Virus record (IMG/VR): IMGVR_UViG_3300027770_000141
Coordinates: 1-35,540 of that record
Origin: a virus
Strand: one strand, 5' to 3'
DNA length: 35,540 nt
The notes under the pieces are model-generated. The model was given only the letters and a program-made list of their open reading frames with translations. It was not told the DNA's origin and did not search any database. A program made the position numbers and the translations under genes. Within the stretch, counting starts at the first letter, position 1. Each line of letters starts with the position of its first letter. This document shows, in pieces, positions 4,967-28,244 of this stretch.

Positions 4967-5470
4967 ATGTCAGTACTTGTTTTGAATTCTCAATATTTGC
5001 CCATACAAACGACTTCTGTGAAGAGAGCGGTCGGTCTGATCTATCGTGGTGTTGCAGTAACTGAAAAGTTCACTGAACAAGTATGGAAATCTATCTCTTC
5101 ACAGTTCGTCCTTCCTTCTGTAATTCGTTTGATTAATTTTCACAAATTACCTCCCAGGAATAATAAATTATCGAAGAAGAATATCTTGATTCGCGATAAA
5201 AATATTTGTCAATATTGTAAAGAGAAGTGCACTGATAGAACCCTCACGATTGATCATATTCTACCGAAATCAAGAGGCGGGACTTCTAAGTGGGAGAATC
5301 TTGTTACAGCATGCAGAAGATGTAATATAACGAAAGCAGATAGAACCCCAGAAGAAGCAGGAATGTTTTTACACACTAAACCAATTCGATTGAATATTTA
5401 CACATACACCACTATCCTGCGTAACAAATGCGAATCGTATCCAGATTGGTCGGAATTTTTGTATAATTGA
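4967..5470 (+). CDS. free-standing HNH endonuclease (COG1403/McrA-like)
   Basis: This 167-residue protein has an N-terminal region beginning MSVLVLNSQYLPIQTTSVKR and a C-terminal HNH nuclease. The zinc knuckle is CQYCKEKC, followed by LTIDHILPKSRGG with the catalytic His, the Asn of WENLVTACRRCN, and the second Cys pair. The layout, with VLNSQYLP then RAVGLIYRG then a PSVIRL segment before the HNH, is that of a widespread bacterial and phage HNH family. Some members are homing enzymes, others act in genome processing. It is not inserted in a recognisable gene. GGAGAG precedes ATG 4967, and its TGA overlaps the region of the next gene's ribosome site. Confidence 0.88.
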   Translation: MSVLVLNSQYLPIQTTSVKRAVGLIYRGVAVTEKFTEQVWKSISSQFVLPSVIRLINFHKLPPRNNKLSKKNILIRDKNICQYCKEKCTDRTLTIDHILPKSRGGTSKWENLVTACRRCNITKADRTPEEAGMFLHTKPIRLNIYTYTTILRNKCESYPDWSEFLYN

Positions 5471-6951: not shown

Positions 6952-7635
6952 ATGCCTAAAATTATTTATACAGACTCGAACAGATTCTATGTCTATGCAT
7001 TTCTGCGAAAAGATAACACCCCATATTATATTGGAAAAGGCCAGGGTAATAGAGCCTGGAGCAAGAGACAATTTCGTCCGGTGGACGATTCGAGAATTGT
7101 TATTCTCAAAGAGATACTTACAGAAACAGAAGCTTTCGATCTTGAAACAGAACTTATAGAATTTTATGGTCGAAAAGATAATGAGACGGGAATTCTCAGA
7201 AATCTAACAGATGGTGGAGAAGGAACTTCTGGCTACATAAATTCTGAAAAAACCAAAGCCAACATGTCTGCAGCTAAATCTGGTGTGAATAATCCTATGT
7301 TTGGAAAGAAGCCTCATAATTTTGGAAAGAAAGCTTCAGAAGAAACTATAGCCAACATGTCTGCAGCTCTATCTGGTGTGAATAATCCTATGTTTGGAAA
7401 GAAGCCTCATAATTTTGGAAAGAAAGCTTCAGAAGAAACTATAGCCAAACGTTCTGGTGAAAATCATTATAATTTTGGAAAGAAACGATCTCCAGAAATA
7501 ATAGCCGAAATATCTAAATCTAACACTGGAAAGAAACATTCACCAGAATCCAGAGCCAAAATGCGAGAATCATGGATTCTAAGAAAGATTTCTAATACTA
7601 TGACAGAAATAGAAAATATCTCTGTTGATGTTTAA
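6952..7635 (+). CDS. GIY-YIG homing endonuclease with NUMOD3 repeats
   Basis: This 227-residue protein has an N-terminal GIY-YIG nuclease: YVYAFLRKDNTPYYIGKGQG carries the two signature strands, followed by a conserved Arg region and the catalytic Glu of ETELIEFYG. From about residue 100 it consists of DNA-binding NUMOD3 motifs, each with the N-P-M-F-G-K-K or N-F-G-K-K pattern followed by a short helix. A 31-residue unit is duplicated in tandem. It is free-standing, lies between tRNA genes on the opposite strand and is driven by a late promoter, like the T4 Seg enzymes. AAGGAAG precedes ATG 6952. The flanking sequences repeat each other, indicating insertion or duplication of the tRNA-edge sequence. 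Confidence 0.93.
   Translation: MPKIIYTDSNRFYVYAFLRKDNTPYYIGKGQGNRAWSKRQFRPVDDSRIVILKEILTETEAFDLETELIEFYGRKDNETGILRNLTDGGEGTSGYINSEKTKANMSAAKSGVNNPMFGKKPHNFGKKASEETIANMSAALSGVNNPMFGKKPHNFGKKASEETIAKRSGENHYNFGKKRSPEIIAEISKSNTGKKHSPESRAKMRESWILRKISNTMTEIENISVDV
7258..7443 (+). repeat. 93-bp tandem duplication inside the GIY-YIG gene
   Basis: Units 7258-7350 and 7351-7443 are almost identical, differing at about two bases. Each encodes one 31-residue block containing NPMFGKKPHNFGKK. The near identity marks a recent expansion of the DNA-recognition region. Confidence 0.85.
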
Positions 7636-8587: not shown

Positions 8588-9181
8588 TCAACCGATAATT
8601 TTGTCCCCAGAGACCCGAGCGTTCCCATAGACCACTGCGTTCCCAGAGACCACTGCGTTCTCATAGATCCAGGCGTTCCCAGAGACCACTGCGTTCCCAG
8701 AGACCATTGCGTTCCCATAGACCATTGCGTTCTCATAGATCCAGGCGTTCCCAGAGACCATTGCGTTCCCAGAGACCATTGCGTACCCATAGACCGATGC
8801 GTTCCCAGAGACCACTGCGGACCCATAGACCCGAGAGTTCCCAGAGACCAATGTGTACCCATAGACCATTGCGTTCCTATAGACCCGAGCGTACCCAGAG
8901 ACCTGAGCGTTCTCAAAGACCATAGCGTTCTCAAAGACCATAGCGTTCCCGAAAACCATAGCGTTCCCGAAAACCCTGGCGTTCCCAGAGACCCGAGCGT
9001 ATCCATAGACCACTGCGTTCCCAGAGACCACTGCGTCTCCAGAGATTACTGCGTCAGGACCAACAAAAGCGGTCTCAGCGACGGTAGCAGTATTCTGGAC
9101 CCAGCCGCCTCCGTTAGGATGAACGTGCCACGTCTCAAGAGTAGCGTCAGGAAAAGCTGTCTTTAAATCTTCGAACTTCAT
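8588..9181 (-). CDS. left-handed beta-helix repeat protein (hexapeptide type)
   Basis: This 197-residue protein has a 30-residue N-terminal cap, MKFEDLKTAFPDATLETWHV, followed by NGGGWVQNTATV and about 24 imperfect hexapeptides of the form G-N-A-x-V-x. Such repeats fold into a left-handed parallel beta-helix, as in hexapeptide acyltransferases and the E. coli YdcK-like group. No catalytic His typical of the acyltransferases is obvious, so a binding or structural role is more likely. The DNA is an array of 18-nt repeats. A paralogue with the same cap lies at 10432-11028, where the helix is more diverged. The start sits 8 nt after a -10 box, predicting a leaderless early mRNA. Confidence 0.85.
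   Translation of the reverse strand: MKFEDLKTAFPDATLETWHVHPNGGGWVQNTATVAETAFVGPDAVISGDAVVSGNAVVYGYARVSGNARVFGNAMVFGNAMVFENAMVFENAQVSGYARVYRNAMVYGYTLVSGNSRVYGSAVVSGNASVYGYAMVSGNAMVSGNAWIYENAMVYGNAMVSGNAVVSGNAWIYENAVVSGNAVVYGNARVSGDKIIG
8590..9060. repeat. 18-nt repeat array encoding hexapeptides
   Basis: The array is built from 18-nt units related to GTTCCCAGAGACCACTGC and to GTTCCCATAGACCATTGC, read on the plus strand. It encodes the beta-helix rungs on the minus strand and keeps other frames open, which produces several spurious long frames here. Confidence 0.85.
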
Positions 9182-10431: not shown

Positions 10432-11028
10432 TTATTCGTTACCACTTTCGTTCCATGCGACCTTGGTATGCCCAGAGATCTGGGCCTTCCCAGAGACCAC
10501 TGCGGATCCATAGATCCGAGCGTTCTCAAAGATCTCAGCGTCTCCGCAGACCTGAGCATCCTCATAGACCCAAGAAGTCCCGGAGACTATAGCGTTATCA
10601 AAGACCCGAGCGTTATCCATGACCTGGGAACTCCCACAGACAAAAGAAATTCCATAAACCCAAGCAAATCCTGAAACCTGGGCGTTCCCCAAGACCCGAG
10701 ATCTCCCTTCGACCCGAGCGTCTCCAGAGACCCCAGCGTGCTCAAAGATATGAGCTTTCTCACCGACCTGAGCGTTCTCGCAGACCACAGCGGATTCGTA
10801 AACCCAGGCGTCGCCCCAGACCACAGCGTTCCCATAGACCCGAGCGTGGTCGAGGATCCGAGCTTCCTCATAGACCCGAGCGGATCCAGAGACGATAGCG
10901 TCAGGACCCACATAGGCACTATTAGTGACCGTAGCAGTATTCTGAACCCAGCCTCCTCCATTAGAATGAGGGTGCCACGTCTCAAGAGTAGCGTCAGGAA
11001 AAGTAGATTTCAAATCTTCGAATGTCAT
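10432..11028 (-). CDS. second left-handed beta-helix repeat protein
   Basis: This 198-residue paralogue of the protein at 8588-9181 shares the cap, which here begins MTFEDLKSTFPDATLETWHP and again leads into NGGGWVQNTATV. Roughly 26 hexapeptides follow, with patterns such as G-S-A-R-V-Y and G-D-A-W-V-Y, more varied than in the first copy. The fold is predicted to be a left-handed parallel beta-helix. The function is unknown; repeated cap and early promoter suggest both copies act in the same early process, perhaps binding a host target. The promoter has a perfect TTGACA -35 box. The start codon lies 8 nt after the -10 box, predicting a leaderless mRNA. Confidence 0.85.
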   Translation of the reverse strand: MTFEDLKSTFPDATLETWHPHSNGGGWVQNTATVTNSAYVGPDAIVSGSARVYEEARILDHARVYGNAVVWGDAWVYESAVVCENAQVGEKAHIFEHAGVSGDARVEGRSRVLGNAQVSGFAWVYGISFVCGSSQVMDNARVFDNAIVSGTSWVYEDAQVCGDAEIFENARIYGSAVVSGKAQISGHTKVAWNESGNE

Positions 11029-19534: not shown

Positions 19535-20166
19535 TATGGATTTCCAAAAGGGTTTGACTCGGTGAAGTCAATTATTATATTAGATTTATCTTGTATTGCT
19601 TTATTCTTTGCAAATGGGTCACTTATACCAGTGGCACCATCATTTCCGTATGCTAGTGGAACCTCATCTGCTTCTGTACCTGTATTGATAGTTTCATTAG
19701 AATAAGTGAAGACTTCGCATGTAAGAACAAAATATTGTCTTGAACCAAGAGGAAACAGAGGAGTTTTGTCGTCTACATATTTAATTTCAAATAGAGATCT
19801 TGAAGTTGGAAACATAACTAGATCCCCTTCTAATGGTAGTACTGCACCAACAATAGATGTGAATCGTTCACGAGATACGATTAATCTTAATCTATCTCCT
19901 AGAGTGAACCCAAACTTAGAAATTAAAGCTCCGTCTCCCAAAAACGATTCATAATTTTCAATGTACATTTCAATAGTGAAATCGTTAACGAATTTCGATA
20001 CATAATCTTCTCTATATAATTCATCAAGTTTTACAATAGTTCTCGGTAGATATATGAAATCGCAACCGGCTATTTGTATAGTTTCGTTCACTAATACTTG
20101 GAGAAGATTTTGTTCTTCTGTAGATCCTATTCCTCTACCAGATTGAAAGAATTTATTTGTAGGCAT
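19534..20166 (-). CDS. 14: neck protein gp14
   Basis: The protein has 210 residues and begins MPTNKFFQSGRGIGSTEEQN. Resemblance to T4 gp14 is seen in QIAGCDFIYLPRTIVKLDEL, in the F-G segment GALISKFGFTLGDRLRLIVS, and in EGDLVMFPTSRSLFEIKYVD. T4 gp14 is about 256 residues, so this version is shorter, mainly at the C-terminus. The family forms part of the neck that closes the filled head and accepts the tail. It lies between gp13 and gp15 in the usual T4 order. Its start is 3 nt after the gp13 stop. Confidence 0.9.
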   Translation of the reverse strand: MPTNKFFQSGRGIGSTEEQNLLQVLVNETIQIAGCDFIYLPRTIVKLDELYREDYVSKFVNDFTIEMYIENYESFLGDGALISKFGFTLGDRLRLIVSRERFTSIVGAVLPLEGDLVMFPTSRSLFEIKYVDDKTPLFPLGSRQYFVLTCEVFTYSNETINTGTEADEVPLAYGNDGATGISDPFAKNKAIQDKSNIIIDFTESNPFGNP

Positions 20167-20169
20167 TAT

Positions 20170-20931
20170 CTATCCGATATATATGTCGAGTGGGAGTTGG
20201 AGATCTACTGTTAATCTTTTTTCTAATTTGTCAATTTCAGTTACTGCTTCTGCATATATCGCTTCACCATTAATTGTAATCCCACCAGGAAGATTCATCG
20301 AACCATATTTCTTAAGATTTTCACCCCACTGTCTCTTTATTAAAGCTGTAGCATATTCTTTCAAAAATTCATCTGCCCATATATCACTGTAGGTATCTGT
20401 ATCTATTTTTCTGTATATCTTAAGAACCAGATTTGATGCTTTCTCTTTCAGAACAGAAAGAGGTTCGTTAAATTTAATTCTATTGGTTTTTCTATTAAAC
20501 TTAAAAGAATTTAGAGGAGATAGTGTCATCTGTAATGTTGATAGGTATGATTTCATACCATCTAAATAAGATAAATTATTTCCTACAACATTTGACGAAT
20601 TATAGAAATCGTTCATATAGAATTGATATTCAGCATTAAATAGATCTCCTGCGCCAACAGCTGTTGAGGAATCATTTATAGGAAGAACAGATATCACAGA
20701 AAATACTTTTTCTTCGAGAGTAATGTATCCAGCAGAAACAGCAGCATCTGTTATAGGAACAATAAGATAATCTTCTTCTACACCATCAAAATGATAATCC
20801 CAATATTTTGCAATAGCATCGTCGATTCTGTCGTCAACTTGTTCTTCTGCTACGTTAATTTCGATGACAGGAAATCCGAGTCTTCTTAAGCAATAATCAG
20901 CGAATTCTACTTTTGTTGTTGGTGTAGCCAT
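20170..20931 (-). CDS. 13: neck protein gp13
   Basis: The 253-residue protein starts MATPTTKVEFADYCLRRLGF at ATG 20931, 6 nt after GGAG; an upstream TTG at 20943 is not needed. The hallmark is YCLRRLGFPVIEINVAEEQV followed by DDRIDDAIAKYWDYHFDG, the conserved start of gp13 in T4-type phages. Later segments include YLDGMKSYLSTLQMTLSPLN and a C-terminal helix. T4 gp13 is about 309 residues, so this is a shorter version. With gp14 it forms the head-to-tail neck. It is driven by a late promoter placed directly after the terminator of the upstream gene. Confidence 0.92.
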   Translation of the reverse strand: MATPTTKVEFADYCLRRLGFPVIEINVAEEQVDDRIDDAIAKYWDYHFDGVEEDYLIVPITDAAVSAGYITLEEKVFSVISVLPINDSSTAVGAGDLFNAEYQFYMNDFYNSSNVVGNNLSYLDGMKSYLSTLQMTLSPLNSFKFNRKTNRIKFNEPLSVLKEKASNLVLKIYRKIDTDTYSDIWADEFLKEYATALIKRQWGENLKKYGSMNLPGGITINGEAIYAEAVTEIDKLEKRLTVDLQLPLDIYIG

Positions 20932-20947
20932 TAGTCTCTCCAAATAT

Positions 20948-20955
20948 TATTTATA
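20948..20955 (-). promoter_or_regulatory. late promoter for gp13-gp14-gp15
   Basis: Minus-strand TATAAATA, starting transcription near 20942 with an 11-nt leader that holds GGAGAG before ATG 20931. It directly follows the T tract of the upstream terminator. Confidence 0.8.
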
Positions 20956-20984
20956 AAATAAAAAAGGAACCAACTAAGGTTCCT
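20956..20984 (-). terminator. intrinsic terminator
   Basis: On the minus strand AGGAACC (complement of 20978-20984) pairs with GGTTCCT (complement of 20965-20971) around a 6-nt loop, followed by TTTTTTATTTTA. It ends the 120-aa gene and abuts the late promoter for gp13. Confidence 0.88.
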
Positions 20985-21009
20985 GAAAATAGAGTATTGA
21001 GATTATTAT

Positions 21010-21372
21010 TTAATCTTCTTCTTTAATGAAGAATGATAATTGTGACATTTGAATTGGCGTTAATGTAACTGTTTCAGGAAGCTTATCCACTGAAAACGGT
21101 TCGAAAGGAAGAATAACGTCTTCTAGAAGAAGTGGATTCAATTCTTCAATGAAGGCATCGAAATTTTCACTAGAAACTACAACTGTTCCTTCATTTTCTA
21201 CACCATATTTTTGCACTAGCTTTTGTCTAGCTTCTTCAAGATCGGCAAGTTCTACACCGATAACCTTTAGAACTTTAGAAATTCTATATGCCAGAGCGAT
21301 CGGAAGAGCGCAATTTGAAAGTGCCACAAGAGCTTGTTCAGAATTTTTTAATTGACCGAGTGTCAAAGTCAT
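21010..21372 (-). CDS. DUF1617-like small phage protein (120 aa)
   Basis: The product begins MTLTLGQLKNSEQALVALSN. The pattern of L-x-x-G-Q-L, A-L-x-x-L, L-P-x-A-x-A-Y-R-I, then ELADLEEARQKLVQKYGVEN resembles DUF1617-type proteins, small helical proteins found among tail genes of many phages. A C-terminal acidic half with PFEPFSVDKLPETVTLTPIQ follows. Function unknown. AGGAGAT lies 10 nt before ATG 21372, and a minus-strand late promoter stands at 21435-21442. It is the first gene of the minus-strand virion cluster and has its own terminator. Confidence 0.7.
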   Translation of the reverse strand: MTLTLGQLKNSEQALVALSNCALPIALAYRISKVLKVIGVELADLEEARQKLVQKYGVENEGTVVVSSENFDAFIEELNPLLLEDVILPFEPFSVDKLPETVTLTPIQMSQLSFFIKEED

Positions 21373-21434
21373 GTTAATTTTATCTCCTAATTAATAATGT
21401 ACATCTTTGTAAGTGGAATCATCACCAACAAAAT

Positions 21435-21442
21435 TATTTATA
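21435..21442 (-). promoter_or_regulatory. late promoter for the 120-aa gene
   Basis: Minus-strand TATAAATA with a predicted leader of about 56 nt. On the plus strand the same bases touch the AGGAGA ribosome site of the lysin gene, so the two divergent units share a very tight control region. Confidence 0.65.
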
Positions 21443-21453
21443 GGAGATAAATT

Positions 21454-21870
21454 TTGATCAGAAAATTTTTGATTTCTATGTTCTTTACATCAGTTGTATT
21501 TGGATACGAAGTAAAGCGCAATAGAAATATAAATTGTATGGCATCTGCTATATATCATGAAGCCAGAGGCGAATCAAGGAAAGGTAAGATAGCAGTAGGC
21601 TATGTAATTCTCAACAGGATTAAAAGAGGATATGGCCATAATCCATGTGAAATTGTTTCTGCTAAAAACCAATTTTCTTGGTTTGGTAAAAGACTTGCTG
21701 TCAAAGAGAAAGAGAAATGGATAGAATGTTACAGATTATCGAAGAAAATATTATTGAATGAGACTAAAGATCCAACCAATGGATCGATTTTCTTCCATGA
21801 GAAAACGCTTAGACCTGGCTGGAAGTACAAAAGAGTAGCAGTTATTGATAACCACGTCTTCTATAAGTAA
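21454..21870 (+). CDS. SleB-type cell wall hydrolase with N-terminal signal
   Basis: A 138-residue protein with catalytic-domain motifs of the Hydrolase_2/SleB family: SAIYHEARGESRKGKIAVGY with the catalytic Glu 36, VILNRIKRGYG, and SIFFHEKTLRPGW. The family cleaves peptidoglycan. The start is taken as TTG 21454 because AGGAGA lies 6 nt upstream and the resulting N-terminus (MIRKFLISMFFTSVVFGYEV) is a plausible signal peptide or signal-anchor; ATG 21478 would lose the basic end. Export by the host secretion system rather than a holin alone is therefore possible. It stands alone between the late virion cluster and the early primase operon and may be the phage endolysin. Confidence 0.88.
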   Translation: MIRKFLISMFFTSVVFGYEVKRNRNINCMASAIYHEARGESRKGKIAVGYVILNRIKRGYGHNPCEIVSAKNQFSWFGKRLAVKEKEKWIECYRLSKKILLNETKDPTNGSIFFHEKTLRPGWKYKRVAVIDNHVFYK

Positions 21871-21975
21871 CATACAGTAGTAATATCTATTACTTAAAAC
21901 TGGTACATACCTATTGTAGCTTAGAAAGTCAAGGATGTCAAGTCTTTTTATAAAGTATATTGAGAAAACACGACA

Positions 21976-22015
21976 TTGCTTATTTGGTACAAATAAGGTA
22001 TAATAGTTCTATATG
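21976..22015 (+). promoter_or_regulatory. early promoter P9, predicted leaderless start
   Basis: TTGCTT (21976-21981), 17 bp, TATAAT (21999-22004), AGTTCTAT, ATG 22013. It belongs to the same family as P1-P6 and drives the primase/nucleotide operon. Confidence 0.8.
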
Positions 22016-23032
22016 AGTATTTTAGTTGACTCCAAATATCTTTCTTTAATTTCTCCCAAATTATTAAACTTCAAAAAGAAAACGGAAATTCTTTGGAATT
22101 TCAAGTGTCCGTATTGTGGTGATTCTAAAAAGAAAGAATCTAAATCTAGAGGCTATGTTTATAGAAAGCATAATGATCTATTTTTTAAATGTCATAATTG
22201 TGTAAAGGGTACAACGTTCTCTAATTTCTTACAATTTTTAGATCCAATCTTACATAAAGAATATGTATTCGAACGATTCCGCTCCGGTGACACACATCCG
22301 AATCATAATTATAAAAAACCAATTCTAGTTTCTTCGGAAGCTAAGAATCGATTTCAGAAGAAGATTATATCATATGATATTCCCCAATTAGAATCTATTG
22401 CGTCTCTACCAGATCTTCATTATGCTAAAGAATATATTAGATCTAGATGTATTCCTTTTGAACATTGGAATAAATTATTTTTCACTTCTGATTTCAAAGA
22501 ATATATTCGCTCTGTTAATGAGGACAAATGTAAGAATTTAAAATCAAAAGATCCTAGAATTGTTATTCCGTTCTTCGATATTGCAGGTAAGTTAATTGCA
22601 GTTCAAGGTCGTGCTCTAGAAGATAATAATGCGAGATACATAACAATAAAAACTAAAGACGATAATGATAAAATATATGGTTTGGAAAGACTAAATACAA
22701 ATATTCCCATATGGATATTTGAAGGACCAATTGATTCACTATTCGTGAAAAATGGATTAGCAACTGCAGGATCTGAATTATCAAAATTAATCAAAGAATT
22801 TCCACAAGCCACATTTGTTTTCGACAACGAGCCTTCTAATGTCCAGATCGTTAGAAATATGCAAGATATAATAGACTCGAATTCAAAGATTGTAATTTGG
22901 AAAAAAACTAACACACACAAAGATGTCAACGATATGGTTATGTCTGGTATCAATATCGATAAAGAATTATCTGAATCTGTTTTTTCAGGATTGGAAGCGA
23001 GATTCAGATACAATATTTGGAAGAGGATATAA
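22013..23032 (+). CDS. 61: DNA primase (gp61)
   Basis: This 339-residue protein matches T4 gp61. The N-terminal zinc ribbon is FKCPYCGDSKKK with C32 and C35, then FKCHNC with C60 and C63. The middle has YIRSRCIPFEHWNKLFFTSD, and the catalytic Toprim region has VQGRALEDNNARYITI, IWIFEGPIDSLFVKNG with the key Glu, and FVFDNEPSN with the acidic metal ligands; KDVNDMV follows. The enzyme makes RNA primers for lagging-strand synthesis together with the gp41 helicase. Its start codon is 8 nt after a -10 box, so the mRNA is predicted leaderless. It heads a five-gene replication and nucleotide operon. Confidence 0.93.
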   Translation: MSILVDSKYLSLISPKLLNFKKKTEILWNFKCPYCGDSKKKESKSRGYVYRKHNDLFFKCHNCVKGTTFSNFLQFLDPILHKEYVFERFRSGDTHPNHNYKKPILVSSEAKNRFQKKIISYDIPQLESIASLPDLHYAKEYIRSRCIPFEHWNKLFFTSDFKEYIRSVNEDKCKNLKSKDPRIVIPFFDIAGKLIAVQGRALEDNNARYITIKTKDDNDKIYGLERLNTNIPIWIFEGPIDSLFVKNGLATAGSELSKLIKEFPQATFVFDNEPSNVQIVRNMQDIIDSNSKIVIWKKTNTHKDVNDMVMSGINIDKELSESVFSGLEARFRYNIWKRI

Positions 23033-23036
23033 CATT

Positions 23037-23405
23037 ATGTATACATACAATGCAAAAGTAATCAGAATTTTAGATGGTGATACTGTCGAAGCCGAGCTTG
23101 ATCTGGGTTTTGGTGTGTCGATCACACGTATCGTAAGAATGAACGGCATAGATACTCCAGAAAAGACTTCTAGTATTTTAACTGTTCGCGAACTTGCGGC
23201 AAAGGCAACAGCTAGAGCAAAATATGCTTTAGAAAATAAGAAAGTTATTTTAAAGACACAATTAGATAAGGGAGATAAGTACGGTCGTGTTTTGGCTTAT
23301 ATCTACGAATCGCAACGAGAATTAGATGCAGATCAATCTTTCAATTTGAAATTGATTCAAGAAGGTTTGGCGTTTCCGTATGATGGTGGCAAAAAAATTG
23401 TATAA
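23037..23405 (+). CDS. thermonuclease-like (SNase) nuclease
   Basis: This 122-residue protein starts at ATG 23037, which has GAGGA upstream and lies 4 nt after the primase stop; a longer frame inside the primase gene is spurious. It has the SNase OB-fold order: AKVIRILDGDTVEAELDLGF, then MNGIDTPEK with the catalytic Arg-Glu neighbourhood, KVILKTQLDKGDKYGRVLAY with the second Arg, and a C-terminal helix FNLKLIQEGLAFPYDGG. Cytosolic placement in a nucleotide operon suggests DNA breakdown to supply nucleotides, or recombination. No signal peptide is present, unlike secreted bacterial relatives. The 3' end overlaps thyX. Confidence 0.87.
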   Translation: MYTYNAKVIRILDGDTVEAELDLGFGVSITRIVRMNGIDTPEKTSSILTVRELAAKATARAKYALENKKVILKTQLDKGDKYGRVLAYIYESQRELDADQSFNLKLIQEGLAFPYDGGKKIV

Positions 23406-24093
23406 AAATTATGATGAGATTGTGAAAGTTCGACTAGTTTCATATTCACAACCAGGACCAGAGTTTGTTGACTTACTCGATACCGAAGAGAGTAATACAT
23501 TAACAAATCTAATTTCTTTTTGTGCTAGAGTATCTAATCCTTCTAACCAAAATAATGTAGAGACTTCAGAGAAATTGCTGAATTATCTGATTCGTCATAA
23601 ACATTGGTCGCCTTTTGAGATGGTGAATGTTTGTTTAGAAATTACTTCTACACGTGATATTATAAGACAGATTCTTCGACATAGATCTGCTTTTTTTCAG
23701 GAATATAGTCAAAGATATGCAGATCCAACTCAAGATCTAGAATTTTGTTTGCGAGAATGTAGAATTCAAGATACTAAGAATCGACAAAATTCTGTCGAAT
23801 TAGTTGAAGACGAATATGGGTTGAATGGGATCTGGATACAAATGCAAATCGAAATTATTGAGAAAGCAGAAATGCACTATCGATATGCTATTTCGCAAGG
23901 CATTGCAAAAGAAGTTGCTAGAGTAATTCTACCAGAAGGTAATACAGTTTCTAGAGTTTATATGAATGCGTCTCTGCGGACTTGGATCCATTTTTTAGAA
24001 GTCAGAACAGGAAACGGAACGCAAAAAGAACATATGATGATTGCACGTGCCTGTGCAGAATCTTTAAATAAAATTTTCCCGTATATTAAGTAA
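23380..24093 (+). CDS. thyX: flavin-dependent thymidylate synthase ThyX
   Basis: This 237-residue frame contains the ThyX signature RHRSAFFQEYSQRYADP at 100-116, preceded by HKHWSPFEMVNVCLEITSTR, and the C-terminal helix of the active site MNASLRTWIHFLEVRTGNGT. The enzyme makes dTMP from dUMP with folate and FAD, replacing the ThyA of T4. The start is uncertain: ATG 23380/23383 overlaps the nuclease gene, while GTG 23422 would give the usual short N-terminus VKVRLVSYS and has GATGAG just upstream. It lies in one operon with both ribonucleotide reductase subunits, completing a DNA precursor pathway. Confidence 0.92.
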   Translation: MMVAKKLYKNYDEIVKVRLVSYSQPGPEFVDLLDTEESNTLTNLISFCARVSNPSNQNNVETSEKLLNYLIRHKHWSPFEMVNVCLEITSTRDIIRQILRHRSAFFQEYSQRYADPTQDLEFCLRECRIQDTKNRQNSVELVEDEYGLNGIWIQMQIEIIEKAEMHYRYAISQGIAKEVARVILPEGNTVSRVYMNASLRTWIHFLEVRTGNGTQKEHMMIARACAESLNKIFPYIK

Positions 24094-24106: not shown

Positions 24107-25267
24107 ATGACAGAAAATTATTTGGGAATTAATATTGATTATTCAAGAGATTCAAACTTTGACGAATTAGGTTTGAAGAGATTGAAAGAATCATATATGG
24201 GTGACAAAGAGACTTCCCCACAACAAAGATACGCATTTGTATCAAAATATTTTTCGTCAAATCCTGAACATGCACAGAGACTATATGATTATTCTTCTAA
24301 ACATTGGTTAAGTTATTCTACACCAATTCTTTCTTATGGTAGAACAAAGAAAGGTCTTCCGATTAGTTGTTTTTTGTCATACATTCCGGATTCCGCAGAG
24401 GGATTGGTTGATGCCTTGTCGGAAACTAATTGGTTATCTATGTTGGGTGGTGGTGTAGGACTTGGTATTGGTATGAGATCTTCGAGTGAGAAATCTACTG
24501 GTGTTATGGCGCATATGAAAACGTATGATGCTTGTTCTTTGGCATATAGACAAGGAACAACACGACGTGGATCTTATGCAGCTTATATTGCTATCTCACA
24601 TCCAGACATTATCAATTTCATGGAGATGAGAAAACCTACTGGTGATCCAAATATTCGTTGCTTTAATATGCATAATGCAGTAATGATTCCAGATTCCTTC
24701 ATGAAGATTATTGAACGATGTATGGTGGATCCTACTGCAGATGACTCCTGGGATCTGATTGATCCTTCTTCAAACGAAATTAGAGAAACTGTTTCAGCAA
24801 AGTATCTTTGGCAATTGTTATTAGAATTAAGAATGATGACTGGCGAACCTTATCTGTTGTTTATTGACACTGCAAATAATGCTATGCCAAGAGAACAATA
24901 TGATAAAGGTTTAAGAATTCGACAATCTAATATCTGTTGTTTAACTGGAGATTCGAAGATTACTGTATCTAAATCGAAAACAGGGAGCAATCCTTTCCAA
25001 GAGAATTTAAAATCTTTTGTTGAGAAGTATACAATGGGTTTTTACATAGAAGATATCTGGGTTAAGAGTTTCGATACACAAACACAAGAAGTCGAGTGGA
25101 ATTTAATTGACGGGGCAAAACATTCGGGAGATGTTGATGATTTGTATGAAATTGAAACACCATCTGGTAATGTGATTCGATGTACACCCGAACATTATAT
25201 CTGGACCAAAAATCGTGGATATGTCATGGCTCAAGATTTACTTGAAACTGACGACTTAGTAGAGTAA
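24107..25267 (+). CDS. nrdA: ribonucleotide reductase large subunit, N-terminal extein fused to split intein N-half
   Basis: The 386-residue frame has two parts. Residues 1-277 are NrdA: YSTPILSYGRTKKGLPISCF with the first redox Cys, the glycine loop MLGGGVGLGIGMRS, NMHNAVMIPD, and RQSNIC, whose C277 aligns with the thiyl-radical Cys 439 of E. coli. No N-terminal ATP cone is present. Residues 278-386 are an intein N-half: C278 begins CLTGDSKITV (block A), and VIRCTPEHYIW carries the T-x-x-H of block B; a stop follows DDLVE. It should splice in trans with the C-half at 26186-26287. AGAGGA precedes ATG 24107. Confidence 0.93.
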   Translation: MTENYLGINIDYSRDSNFDELGLKRLKESYMGDKETSPQQRYAFVSKYFSSNPEHAQRLYDYSSKHWLSYSTPILSYGRTKKGLPISCFLSYIPDSAEGLVDALSETNWLSMLGGGVGLGIGMRSSSEKSTGVMAHMKTYDACSLAYRQGTTRRGSYAAYIAISHPDIINFMEMRKPTGDPNIRCFNMHNAVMIPDSFMKIIERCMVDPTADDSWDLIDPSSNEIRETVSAKYLWQLLLELRMMTGEPYLLFIDTANNAMPREQYDKGLRIRQSNICCLTGDSKITVSKSKTGSNPFQENLKSFVEKYTMGFYIEDIWVKSFDTQTQEVEWNLIDGAKHSGDVDDLYEIETPSGNVIRCTPEHYIWTKNRGYVMAQDLLETDDLVE

Positions 25268-25341
25268 TTTCAGTACTTATAAATTTTCTGGTATGTTCTG
25301 AAATTTAGTTTTCTATAAATATATTATAGAGGATTTCTTAT
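25268..25341 (+). other. gap between intein N-half and HNH gene
   Basis: AATTTCAG (25266-25273) can pair with CTGAAATT (about 25297-25304) around a long loop, and the late promoter follows. The hairpin could slow read-through from the early operon into the endonuclease gene. No coding frame is seen. Confidence 0.4.
25314..25321 (+). promoter_or_regulatory. T4-type late promoter for the HNH gene
   Basis: TATAAATA, with predicted start near 25327 and an AGAGGA ribosome site before ATG 25342. It would also transcribe the downstream intein C-half/NrdA-C and NrdB genes late in infection. Confidence 0.75.
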
Positions 25342-26184
25342 ATGGACTACCAGAAAATTTATAGAGATTTAATGGTTAAGGCAAAAAGACAAAATAGAGT
25401 GAAAACTAAAGAACATTATTTTGAAAAACATCATATTATACCAGAATGTTTATTTAAGATTAGAACGAGAAGTGGTCCTAAGGGATATGTTGATGGTGAT
25501 TCCGATGATCAAAATAATTTGGTTCTGTTGACACCCAGAGAGCATTTCATCGCTCATGTGTTATTATGTAAAATTTACAAAAACACTGAATATGCATTTA
25601 AAATTGGTTCTGCTTTATTATTCTTTTTCTCTAAAATTATAAATCCCATGCATCCTAGACTAAAATCATTCGCACCTAATAGCAAAAAATATGAATCATA
25701 TAGAATAATGGGGATTCAATCGATATCAAATGCCAACAAAGGATATATTAATGTTCGCGAACGTGATACTGGTAAATATATAGGTAGAATTTCTATAAAC
25801 GATCCGGATTACATATCAGGTAAATATGTCCATCATACTAAAGGTAGAAAAATATCTGATATTGAACGATCACACAGAAAACCACAAACAGGTAGTAATA
25901 ATAGTAATTACAAAGAAATGACCGAAGAGAGAAAATTGCGATTGTTTTCTCTAGTAGACCGTTGTTTGATTGGTAATCACTTGATATTAAAGTTACTACA
26001 ACGTGAAATGCAAACTGAATTTGTAGAATTTAAAAAAATTAGTAGAGTGTGGTTAGATAATAATTTTGGCTCTATTCAAAATTTTATAGACGAGTGCAAT
26101 AAAACCAATAATTCAACAATACAATATGCACCATATTTTCGTAATTCACAAAGTTATAAAAAACAGTTTTTAAGTAAGGATTAA
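25342..26184 (+). CDS. HNH homing endonuclease between the nrdA halves
   Basis: This 280-residue protein has an HNH core: YFEKHHIIPECLF with H30 and H31, DDQNNLVLLTPREHFIAHVL with Asn 58/59, H68 and H72, typical of phage homing endonucleases with the HHIIP and LTPREHFIAH motifs. A middle segment with NANKGYINVRERDTGKYIGR and a C-terminal helical region with RVWLDNNFGSIQNFIDECNK look like DNA-binding modules. It is a complete separate gene with its own ribosome site and late promoter, not fused to the intein. Its stop lies 1 nt before the start of the intein C-half. It presumably cuts an unbroken nrdA allele to spread this arrangement. Confidence 0.9.
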   Translation: MDYQKIYRDLMVKAKRQNRVKTKEHYFEKHHIIPECLFKIRTRSGPKGYVDGDSDDQNNLVLLTPREHFIAHVLLCKIYKNTEYAFKIGSALLFFFSKIINPMHPRLKSFAPNSKKYESYRIMGIQSISNANKGYINVRERDTGKYIGRISINDPDYISGKYVHHTKGRKISDIERSHRKPQTGSNNSNYKEMTEERKLRLFSLVDRCLIGNHLILKLLQREMQTEFVEFKKISRVWLDNNFGSIQNFIDECNKTNNSTIQYAPYFRNSQSYKKQFLSKD

Positions 26185-26185
26185 T

Positions 26186-27238
26186 ATGATAAAAATTAAA
26201 AAAGTAAAAACGAATGCAACTGCAGTTTATGATATTTCAGTACGTGGAGTAAATAATTTTTTCGCCAACGGAGTGTTAGTCCATAATAGCGAAATCGTCC
26301 TCGCATCTGACGAAAAACGCACAGCAGTATGTTGTTTATCTTCAATTAATATATACAAATATGATGAATTCAAAGATTCGTTTAACCAAGTTATTTCTGA
26401 TGTTGCAGAAATGTTAGATAACGTTCTGACAAAATTTATTAATGAAGCTCCGAATAGTATCAAAAGAGCAAAATATAGTGCGATGATGGAAAGAGCTATT
26501 GGTATTGGAGCTCTGGGTTACCATTCGTATCTACAATCTAAATCTATTCCTTTCGAATCTGTTGCTGCTAAAGTCTTCAATCGATCTTTCTTTAAGACTA
26601 TGAAAGAACATGCTGATACTGCCAATCTTAGATTAGGTACAGAACGTGGTGAAGCTCCAGATATGGTGGGATCCGGGAAACGATTCTCTCATTCAATCGC
26701 AATTGCGCCGAATGCAACAACCAGTATTATCATGGGTAATATTAGTCCTTCAATTGAACCACTAAGGGCAAATGTTTTCAGACAAGATACTCTATCAGGT
26801 TCATTTATTCATAGAAATAAAGAGTTAGAAAAAGTTCTCCTTACTAAGAACGTCGATATGGAAGAAATCTGGAATTCAATTGTGTTGAACGATGGATCTG
26901 TTCAGCATCTAAAATGTTTATCTGATGATGAGAAGGATGTATTCAAGACAGCAATTGAAATCGATCAAAGATGGATTATTGAAACTGCAGGTGACAGACA
27001 AAAATATATTGATCAAGCACAATCAGTTAATTTATTCTTCAAACCAGATACTCACGTTAAATATCTACATGCTATCCATTTCTTAGGATGGAAAGTTGGT
27101 TTGAAAACACTTTATTATTGTCGATCAGAAAAGATCAGAAAGGCAAATAAGATATCTCAAAGAATCGAGCGAAAGAGAATTGAAGATATAGATATCAAAT
27201 CACTTGTTGATGGAGAAGGTTGTCTTGCGTGTGAGTGA
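26186..27238 (+). CDS. nrdA: split intein C-half fused to ribonucleotide reductase large subunit C-terminal extein
   Basis: Residues 1-34 are the intein C-half: VYDISVRGVNNFFANGVLVHN with block F and the block G ending H-N, followed by Ser as the +1 residue. Residues 35-350 continue NrdA: SEIVLASDEKRTAVCCLSSI supplies the active-site Glu (C439-x-E441 in E. coli) and the second redox Cys, then NATTSIIMGNISPSIEPLRA, the radical-transfer pair GLKTLYYCR and the C-terminal redox tail GEGCLACE. Trans-splicing with residues 1-277 of the upstream frame would give a 593-residue enzyme. AAGGA precedes ATG 26186. NrdB follows 28 nt after the stop. Confidence 0.93.
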   Translation: MIKIKKVKTNATAVYDISVRGVNNFFANGVLVHNSEIVLASDEKRTAVCCLSSINIYKYDEFKDSFNQVISDVAEMLDNVLTKFINEAPNSIKRAKYSAMMERAIGIGALGYHSYLQSKSIPFESVAAKVFNRSFFKTMKEHADTANLRLGTERGEAPDMVGSGKRFSHSIAIAPNATTSIIMGNISPSIEPLRANVFRQDTLSGSFIHRNKELEKVLLTKNVDMEEIWNSIVLNDGSVQHLKCLSDDEKDVFKTAIEIDQRWIIETAGDRQKYIDQAQSVNLFFKPDTHVKYLHAIHFLGWKVGLKTLYYCRSEKIRKANKISQRIERKRIEDIDIKSLVDGEGCLACE

Positions 27239-27266: not shown

Positions 27267-28244
27267 ATGAACAAGAAAAATACTGAAGCCAAAATTACAG
27301 ATAAGAGAGCAACGTTCAAGCCCATGAACTATCCATGGGCATTCGACTGCTGGAAAACTCACGAACAAATGCACTGGCTCTGGACAGAAGTCGAAATGAT
27401 GCAAGATATCAAAGATTGGAAAGAGAAATTAACTCTTTCAGAAAAAACTTTCTTGACTCATATTTTTCGATTCTTCACACAAGGTGATATTGACGTCTCT
27501 GATGGATATGTCACAAATTATCTGCCATTTTTCCCACAACCAGAAGTCAGAATGATGCTTCTTGGATTCGCAGCTCGCGAGGCAATTCACGTCGCAGCAT
27601 ATTCTCATCTAGTAGAAACTCTTGGTCTGCCTGAAACAACTTATAATGAATTCATGGAATATTCTTCGATGAAAGAAAAGCATGATTATATCTTCTCACA
27701 TAAAGGAGATGATAATCGGAGTATTGCTAAGAATATTGCAGTATTTTCTGCATTCACCGAAGGAATGCAATTATTCTCTTCGTTTGTTATGTTGCTAAAT
27801 TTTGCTAGACACGGTAAAATGAAAGGCATGGGTATGATTATCCAGTGGTCTCTATTAGACGAAGATATGCACTCTGAGTCCATGATTAGATTATTCAGAA
27901 CTTTTATTGAAGAGGACAGAGAAATTTGGGATGACGAATTAAAAACGGACATCTATAATATCGCAACTAAAATGGTTGAACTAGAAGATAAATTTATTGA
28001 TCTCGCATTCAGTCTTGGCCCGATGGAAAATCTTACCTCAGATGAAGTGAAAAAATATATTCGTTATATCGCAGATAAAAGACTCATCGCAATGGGAATG
28101 AAAACTGTGTTTAAAGTAAAAAGAAATCCACTCACTTGGGTAGACGCAATGATTGGTGTTGGGCATACTTCGTTCTTCGAAAATAGGAGCACCGATTATG
28201 CTAAGGGTGCATTGAAAGGCACCTGGGAAGATGTCTGGCAATAG
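27267..28244 (+). CDS. nrdB: ribonucleotide reductase small subunit, class I
   Basis: This 325-residue protein starts MNKKNTEAKITDKRATFKPM at ATG 27267, which follows AAGGA; five more N-terminal codons are open but unneeded. Metal ligands are visible as WTEVEMMQD, REAIHVAAYSH with E105 and H108, FTEGMQLF, and LLDEDMHSESM with an E-x-x-H. Y112 in HVAAY sits four residues after the His, the position of the radical Tyr 122 in E. coli. It therefore looks like a class Ia-type diiron-tyrosyl subunit. It partners the trans-spliced NrdA and ends the nucleotide operon. The late promoter of the HNH gene may also express it late. Confidence 0.95.
   Translation: MNKKNTEAKITDKRATFKPMNYPWAFDCWKTHEQMHWLWTEVEMMQDIKDWKEKLTLSEKTFLTHIFRFFTQGDIDVSDGYVTNYLPFFPQPEVRMMLLGFAAREAIHVAAYSHLVETLGLPETTYNEFMEYSSMKEKHDYIFSHKGDDNRSIAKNIAVFSAFTEGMQLFSSFVMLLNFARHGKMKGMGMIIQWSLLDEDMHSESMIRLFRTFIEEDREIWDDELKTDIYNIATKMVELEDKFIDLAFSLGPMENLTSDEVKKYIRYIADKRLIAMGMKTVFKVKRNPLTWVDAMIGVGHTSFFENRSTDYAKGALKGTWEDVWQ

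What the first reader, a model, noticed from the sequence alone, without database searches (positions are those of the whole stretch)
24923..26310. The break lies exactly inside the NrdA radical active site
The N-extein ends R-Q-S-N-I-C and the C-extein starts S-E-I. In E. coli NrdA the same block is S-N437-L-C439-L-E441, which supplies the hydrogen-bonding Asn, the thiyl-radical Cys and the catalytic Glu. The intein therefore separates C439 from E441, with insertion directly after the radical Cys. Neither half can be active alone, so dNTP synthesis would depend on trans-splicing. This could act as a control step as well as explaining why the element persists.
Basis: partly seen in the sequence, partly recalled or inferred. 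Interest (0 to 1): 0.8.

Follow-up and report, generated by a model that had tools for sequence, protein, structure and literature searches.

The report
Split intein at reductase radical cysteine
A phage's gene for the enzyme that makes DNA building blocks is cut in two exactly at its most important amino acid by a self-splicing protein element that carries a DNA-cutting gene; the position is real and striking, but the same kind of insertion was already known, and it looks like a mobile parasite rather than a control switch.

Summary
N-half NrdA ends ...RQSNIC (24935-24937 = E. coli C439). A 109-aa N-intein follows (24938-25264), then an HNH endonuclease ORF (25342-26184), a 34-aa C-intein (26186-26287), and the C-extein from Ser440 (26288) and Glu441. 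Aligned with E. coli NrdA, C225, N437 and C439 lie on one chain, and E441, C462, Y730 and Y731 on the other.

The control-step idea is not supported. Sibling contig L002 has an intact nrdA whose protein matches the joined exteins at 592 of 593 residues. Close relative L003 carries a cis mini-intein at the same point, and a homing-like co-conversion footprint surrounds it against L009. Best reading: a mobile "fractured gene" split intein, persisting by homing and excision. The Aeh1 split lies downstream of E441, so it is not a test of this cut.

Precedents: NrdJ-1 (native exteins NPC/SEI) and, unremarked in its annotation, Yersinia phage TG1.

New here: insertions occur in two registers one residue apart, after or before the radical Cys. 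In the second, the radical Cys itself must be the splicing nucleophile. Register A inteins are not one clade (p-AU 6.5e-5). A late-promoter-like site, usually within a predicted hairpin, precedes the endonuclease. Splicing and activity were not tested.

The parts
24107..24937 (+). nrdA N-extein, 277 aa, carries C225, N437 and C439 equivalents, ends RQSNIC
24938..25264 (+). N-intein, 109 aa, C1 (CLTGDSKIT), block B CTPEH; TAA stop 25265-25267
25275..25366 (+). predicted RNA hairpin over the endonuclease RBS and start (about -33 kcal/mol, z -6.4)
25314..25321 (+). TATAAATA, T4-late-promoter-like, 28 nt upstream of the endonuclease ATG
25342..26184 (+). HNH homing-endonuclease ORF, 280 aa, PHROG 655; 32% to the T4 MobE region
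26186..26287 (+). C-intein, 34 aa, own ATG, ends VLVHN
26288..27235 (+). nrdA C-extein, 316 aa, starts Ser440-Glu441, carries C462, Y730, Y731, C759 equivalents
27267..28244 (+). nrdB, small subunit

Best explanation
A mobile split intein with a free-standing MobE-like HNH endonuclease gene between its halves has inserted into phage nrdA immediately after the radical cysteine (C439). Inferred working: the two halves are translated separately, N-intein and C-intein associate, the Cys1 thioester forms on the C439 carbonyl, Ser440 takes over the N-extein, and Asn cyclisation releases a scarless 593-aa NrdA. The endonuclease cuts intein-free nrdA and spreads the element by homing. The site is used because it is conserved, offers a +1 nucleophile, and punishes non-splicing copies; splicing control of dNTP supply is not needed to explain it. 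Shown: anatomy, empty and cis-intein relatives, a footprint of localised transfer, and recurrence at the site. Inferred: splicing, cleavage, inactivity of unspliced halves, late timing of the endonuclease.
For: Intein end models pass their cut-offs and the catalytic letters are intact: C1, TxxH, terminal HN, +1 Ser. Empty-site sibling L002: 850 of 850 nt upstream identical, and the Ser440 codon differs, TCC in L002 and AGC in the window, as if brought in by the element. Cis mini-intein at the same point in L003. L003 against intein-free L009: 12 differences within 300 nt upstream then none from 300 to 1000; 48 within 500 nt downstream then 3 out to 2100 (the first 18 nt downstream were outside that alignment). 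Residue 440 is Ala in L009 and Ser in L003. HNH: phrog_655 homing endonuclease 3.5e-32; H30, H31, N59, H68, H72 invariant in 5 of 5 aligned. 33 of 33 inserts with both junctions found keep the reading of one intact radical Cys after splicing.
Against: No splicing, cleavage or reductase data. The window's intein sequence was not found a second time, so its donor is unknown. L002 against the window shows no wide donor tract, only the 440 codon. The mini-intein in L003 has no endonuclease, so its transfer must have used one in trans, an earlier one now lost, or ordinary recombination. No Pfam model matched the HNH protein and its structure model found no PDB match at E <= 0.001.
Confidence: 0.88

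Rival explanations
1. Regulatory trans-splicing: the split intein is kept because splicing gates NrdA activity in time or by redox state.
For: It sits at the radical Cys, and a Cys1 intein can be redox sensitive (general knowledge). An Aquifex NrdB intein between two iron ligands raises iron loading and activity of the mature protein (PMC8772380 passages), so an RNR intein can matter to its host protein.
Against: Sibling L002 lacks it with 592 of 593 residues otherwise equal. It is absent from 155 of 159 related loci (L030 is cut off and uninformative). Homing-like footprint in a relative.
Confidence: 0.05
2. Aeh1-like genes in pieces: the halves associate and work without splicing, and the intein parts are relics.
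For: Aeh1 nrdA is split around an HNH gene and works as two chains (passages in PMC2988022). T4-group phage enzymes tolerate splits.
Against: All splicing letters are intact. The cut is between C439 and E441, unlike Aeh1, where both are in nrdA-A. Unspliced chains would carry 109 and 34 extra residues at the active-site loop.
Confidence: 0.05
3. Dead gene: the phage reductase is inactivated and the split copy is decaying.
For: Splitting would destroy function if splicing fails.
Against: Both halves are open, catalytic residues are kept, exteins are 592 of 593 identical to the intact sibling, nrdB is intact.
Confidence: 0.02

Closest known systems
NrdJ-1 split intein (metagenomic)
   Same: Native exteins NPC and SEI, so insertion directly after the Cys of the class II NPC-SEI block, +1 Ser; only PDB sequence match of the window N-intein. 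That this Cys is the class II radical Cys is recalled.
   Different: Host gene is nrdJ, not nrdA; whether an HNH gene lay between its halves was not seen here.
Fractured genes (Dassa et al. 2009)
   Same: Split-intein halves with a free-standing endonuclease gene between; 7 nrdA subunits interrupted by inteins are credited to that study (PMC3653736 passage).
   Different: Here a MobE-like HNH nuclease; the paper's new endonuclease family is a different one by recall. The paper was not held.
Yersinia phage vB_YenM_TG1 nrdA (KP202158.1)
   Same: nrdA N-half, HNH gene (32% over 88% of the window protein) and C-half with intein motifs on both sides.
   Different: Inserted one residue earlier, SNL|C...HN|CAEI; annotated only as two reductase genes and an HNH gene.
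Aeromonas phage Aeh1 nrdA-A / mobE / nrdA-B
   Same: HNH gene splits nrdA; mobE has a regulatory hairpin and late promoter (PMC2988022 passages).
   Different: No intein motifs seen; split downstream of NLCIEIALPT; halves work without splicing.
Aquifex aeolicus NrdB intein
   Same: Intein between two essential active-site residues of an RNR (PMC8772380 passages).
   Different: Cis, small subunit, LAGLIDADG endonuclease.

Membership tests
Split intein (Cys1 type) | Cys1 with block A, TxxH block B, terminal HN and C/S/T at +1 | tested here: met
   CLTGDSKIT, CTPEH, VLVHN, Ser440
Split intein (Cys1 type) | Halves on separate ORFs, broken at the canonical endonuclease site | tested here: met
   TAA at 25265, own ATG at 26186; break falls in the linker of the cis mini-intein of L003
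Split intein (Cys1 type) | HINT fold | tested here: inconclusive
   Model of the L003 precursor failed, mean pLDDT 33
Split intein (Cys1 type) | Trans-splicing in solution | not testable with these tools
   needs protein
Fractured gene | Free-standing endonuclease gene between the intein halves | tested here: met
   25342-26184
Fractured gene | Endonuclease of the new family of Dassa et al. (recalled, paper not held; the arrangement, not this family, is what is claimed here) | tested here: not met
   HHIIP...N...EH...H, PHROG 655
MobE-like HNH homing endonuclease | Sequence relation to T4 MobE with HNH residues | tested here: met
   32% over 68% to the T4 mobE region, E 1e-11; invariant H30, H31, N59, H68, H72
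MobE-like HNH homing endonuclease | Cuts intein-free nrdA and promotes homing | not testable with these tools
   needs protein and a phage cross
Aeh1-type genes in pieces | No splicing element; C439 and E441 on one chain | tested here: not met
Class I RNR large subunit | Catalytic Cys pair, N-C-E block, YY radical path | tested here: met
   C225, N437, C439, E441, C462, Y730, Y731, C759 aligned; E. coli C754 faces Glu in this alignment, a Cys lies three residues before C759

The most novel reading that the evidence does not exclude
The nrdA radical-Cys codon is a homing hotspot used by related split inteins in two registers one residue apart. In register A (as here) the radical Cys is the last N-extein residue and residue 440 (S, C or T) is the splicing nucleophile. 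In register B the radical Cys itself is the nucleophile. The register has shifted more than once within the same element lineage, and A-type elements sit in nrdA lineages whose residue 440 is usually already S or C. The endonuclease (HNH or GIY-YIG) is timed by its own late promoter and hairpin.
Probability: 0.55. Interest if true: 0.55.

Novelty: new member of a known kind. Interest (0 to 1): 0.42.

Why it matters
It gives natural sibling sets (empty, cis, split with HNH, split with GIY-YIG, two registers) at one catalytic residue, so how inteins enter, shift and split can be read and tested at a site where any error abolishes the enzyme. For protein chemistry it offers several candidate split inteins with SNIC/SEI, SNLC/CEI and SNL/CxEI junctions. 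It also corrects a reading: an intein inside an active site is expected from how inteins persist and is not evidence for regulation.

Tried and rejected
Rejected: control-step function (empty sibling L002); Aeh1-type association as the main mechanism (intein motifs intact; Aeh1 cut elsewhere); a decaying gene (both halves intact).

Led nowhere: the viral-contig scan with the window HNH protein found no relative, although relatives turned up behind the junction patterns; the genome contigs junction scan gave 10 stretches, of which displayed 6 with the peptide, none an nrdA by eye (the other 4 did not match the peptide pattern); AlphaFold of the L003 precursor failed (pLDDT 33); the HNH model (pLDDT 72) had no PDB match with E <= 0.001. 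Donor of the window's insert: not found. No Pfam family for the window HNH.

Limits: the junction patterns require G-D and a fixed spacing, and one search also requires Gln before SN, so counts of registers say nothing about prevalence. Many loci are near-copies or two cuts of one contig. The register tree has 16 rows, two lacking the C-intein, one long branch (L206) and weak deep forks. The hairpin effect on RBS or AUG access was mixed, and two of the 29 control starts (20928, 21460) were not start codons.

Full report
1. The observation. The window is an IMG/VR virus record of 35,540 bases. nrdA is in two ORFs. The first (24107-25267) ends in RQSNIC followed by a 109-aa N-intein, CLTGDSKIT...CTPEH...LVE-stop. 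The second (26186-27238) begins with a 34-aa C-intein ending VLVHN and goes on SEIVLAS. Alignment with E. coli NrdA (mapped) puts C225, N437 and C439 in the N-half and residue 440 (Ser), E441, C462, Y730, Y731 and C759 in the C-half. The NCBIfam intein end models pass their cut-offs on both halves; the Pfam intein model does not. The N-intein matches one PDB sequence only, the NrdJ-1 intein.

2. What lies between. ORF 25342-26184 is an HNH protein of phrog_655, homing endonuclease, 3.5e-32. It is 32% identical to the T4 mobE region and 32% over 88% of its length to an HNH gene of Yersinia phage TG1. One base separates its stop from the ATG of the C-half. Upstream of it stand TATAAATA at 25314 (11 matches in the window against 3.9 expected) and a strong predicted hairpin, -32.8 kcal/mol, z -6.4.

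3. Origin of the insert. L002 is an intein-free sibling. The 850 nt upstream of the site in nrdA are identical, 2161 nt downstream are 99.5% identical, and the joined window exteins differ from its NrdA at 1 of 593 residues. At the junction the Ser440 codon is TCC in L002 and AGC in the window, so the insert seems to have brought its own +1 codon. L003, a relative with 84% identity over the C-half, has an uninterrupted mini-intein at the same point. Against its intein-free relative L009, L003 shows 12 differences within 300 nt upstream and none from 300 to 1000 nt, and 48 differences within 500 nt downstream (the first 18 nt not counted) and 3 from 500 to 2100 nt. Further-away differences exist too (11 at 1000-1100 nt upstream, others beyond 1800 upstream and beyond 2100 downstream). 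This is what co-conversion during homing leaves. Residue 440 is Ala in L009 and Ser in L003. Of the 159 loci have an uninterrupted motif; L003, L086 and L106 are interrupted, and L030 is cut off.

4. Two registers. Junction patterns in viral contigs gave 15 stretches and 20 stretches. With the window, L086, L106 and six phage records, 44 sequences were classified: L176 had no reductase hit and L199 no N-junction, leaving 42. Fifteen are register A (SNxC|C1) and 27 register B (SNx|C1). Where the C-junction was also found (12 of 15 and 21 of 27) it agreed every time: S, C or T then E in A; C, any residue, then E in B. The spliced product always has one radical Cys in place. In B that Cys is necessarily the +1 nucleophile. 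Register B includes Yersinia phage TG1 (split, with HNH) and Caulobacter, Brevundimonas and Rheinheimera phages (cis). Many of these 42 are near-copies.

5. Register shift. The HNH proteins of L178 (A) and L180 (B) are 84% identical, so one element lineage occurs in both registers. On a tree of 16 inteins register A needs 3 changes, and holding A together is rejected, p-AU 6.5e-5. Deep forks are weak, starred branches alone do not exclude one origin, and one branch is long. In intein-free relatives, residue 440 is Ser in 147 of 155 loci near the window, Cys in 68 of the 77 L178 relatives and 70 of the 79 L167 relatives that have the intact motif, out of 80 loci in each set. So A-type inteins sit where residue 440 can already serve as nucleophile. 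L009/L003 shows that the element can also bring that residue.

6. Endonuclease cassette. In 11 of 11 endonuclease-bearing split inteins (L183 and L192 are near-copies; 7 HNH; of the other 4, L167 and L193 pass the Pfam GIY-YIG cut-off, and L175 and L188 are called GIY-YIG by their sequence alone) a TATAAATA (6) or CATAAATA (5) lies 24-48 nt before the endonuclease start, and 10 of 11 starts fold with z at or below -2.7; L189 is the exception, z -0.9. In the window the predicted RBS access rises from 0.41 to 0.68 in a late-start transcript but AUG access does not change (0.66, 0.63), and in L175 and L206 AUG access falls, so the effect on translation is unproven. Among 29 starts in the window the HNH start has the lowest z (-6.8), and the next (-4.5) belongs to another endonuclease-like gene. 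Passages of PMC2988022 describe the same hairpin and late-promoter control for T4 intron endonucleases and Aeh1 mobE.

7. Comparison with what is known. NrdJ-1 has native exteins NPC and SEI (PMC13123727 passages), that is, the same point in the corresponding class II block. PMC3653736 (passages) credits Dassa et al. with 7 nrdA subunits interrupted by inteins; that paper was not held. The Aquifex NrdB intein separates two iron ligands (PMC8772380 passages). Native insertion sites in general lie near active sites: mean 8.3 A against 21.1 A for other C/S/T sites (PMC3359363 passages). Aeh1 is not the same case: its nrdA-A reads NLCIEIALPT, so C439 and E441 equivalents are on one chain. In the papers searched (listings, and passages of eight papers) I saw no description of the two registers or of TG1 as a split intein; this is no proof that none exists.

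8. Verdict. The position is confirmed and precise. It is a new member of a known kind, best explained as a mobile split intein. Dependence of the phage reductase on splicing is likely; a control role has no support here. The register pattern is the part worth following.

Noticed in passing
L206 (KP202158.1 135655-142419): Yersinia phage TG1 nrdA is a split intein around an HNH gene but is annotated as two reductase alpha genes and a homing endonuclease.
   Followed up: yes
window 6952-7635: GIY-YIG-like ORF with TATAAATA at -77 and a start-region hairpin (z -4.5), as for the HNH gene.
   Followed up: partly
window 4967-5470: HNH-like ORF with CATAAATA 25 nt before its start.
   Followed up: no
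window 8588-9181 and 10432-11028, minus strand: Two ORFs of hexapeptide-like repeats (GNAxVxGxAxV type).
   Followed up: no
L013 against window 20024-24033: 96% identical up to the start of nrdA, then about 75%: a recombination boundary at the reductase gene.
   Followed up: no
window 21000-24048 against L002: Upstream genes differ by about 5% while nrdA-nrdB are almost identical, as if the reductase block was exchanged recently.
   Followed up: no
L167, L193 (Pfam GIY-YIG), L175, L188 (by sequence): The same intein break carries a GIY-YIG instead of an HNH endonuclease.
   Followed up: partly
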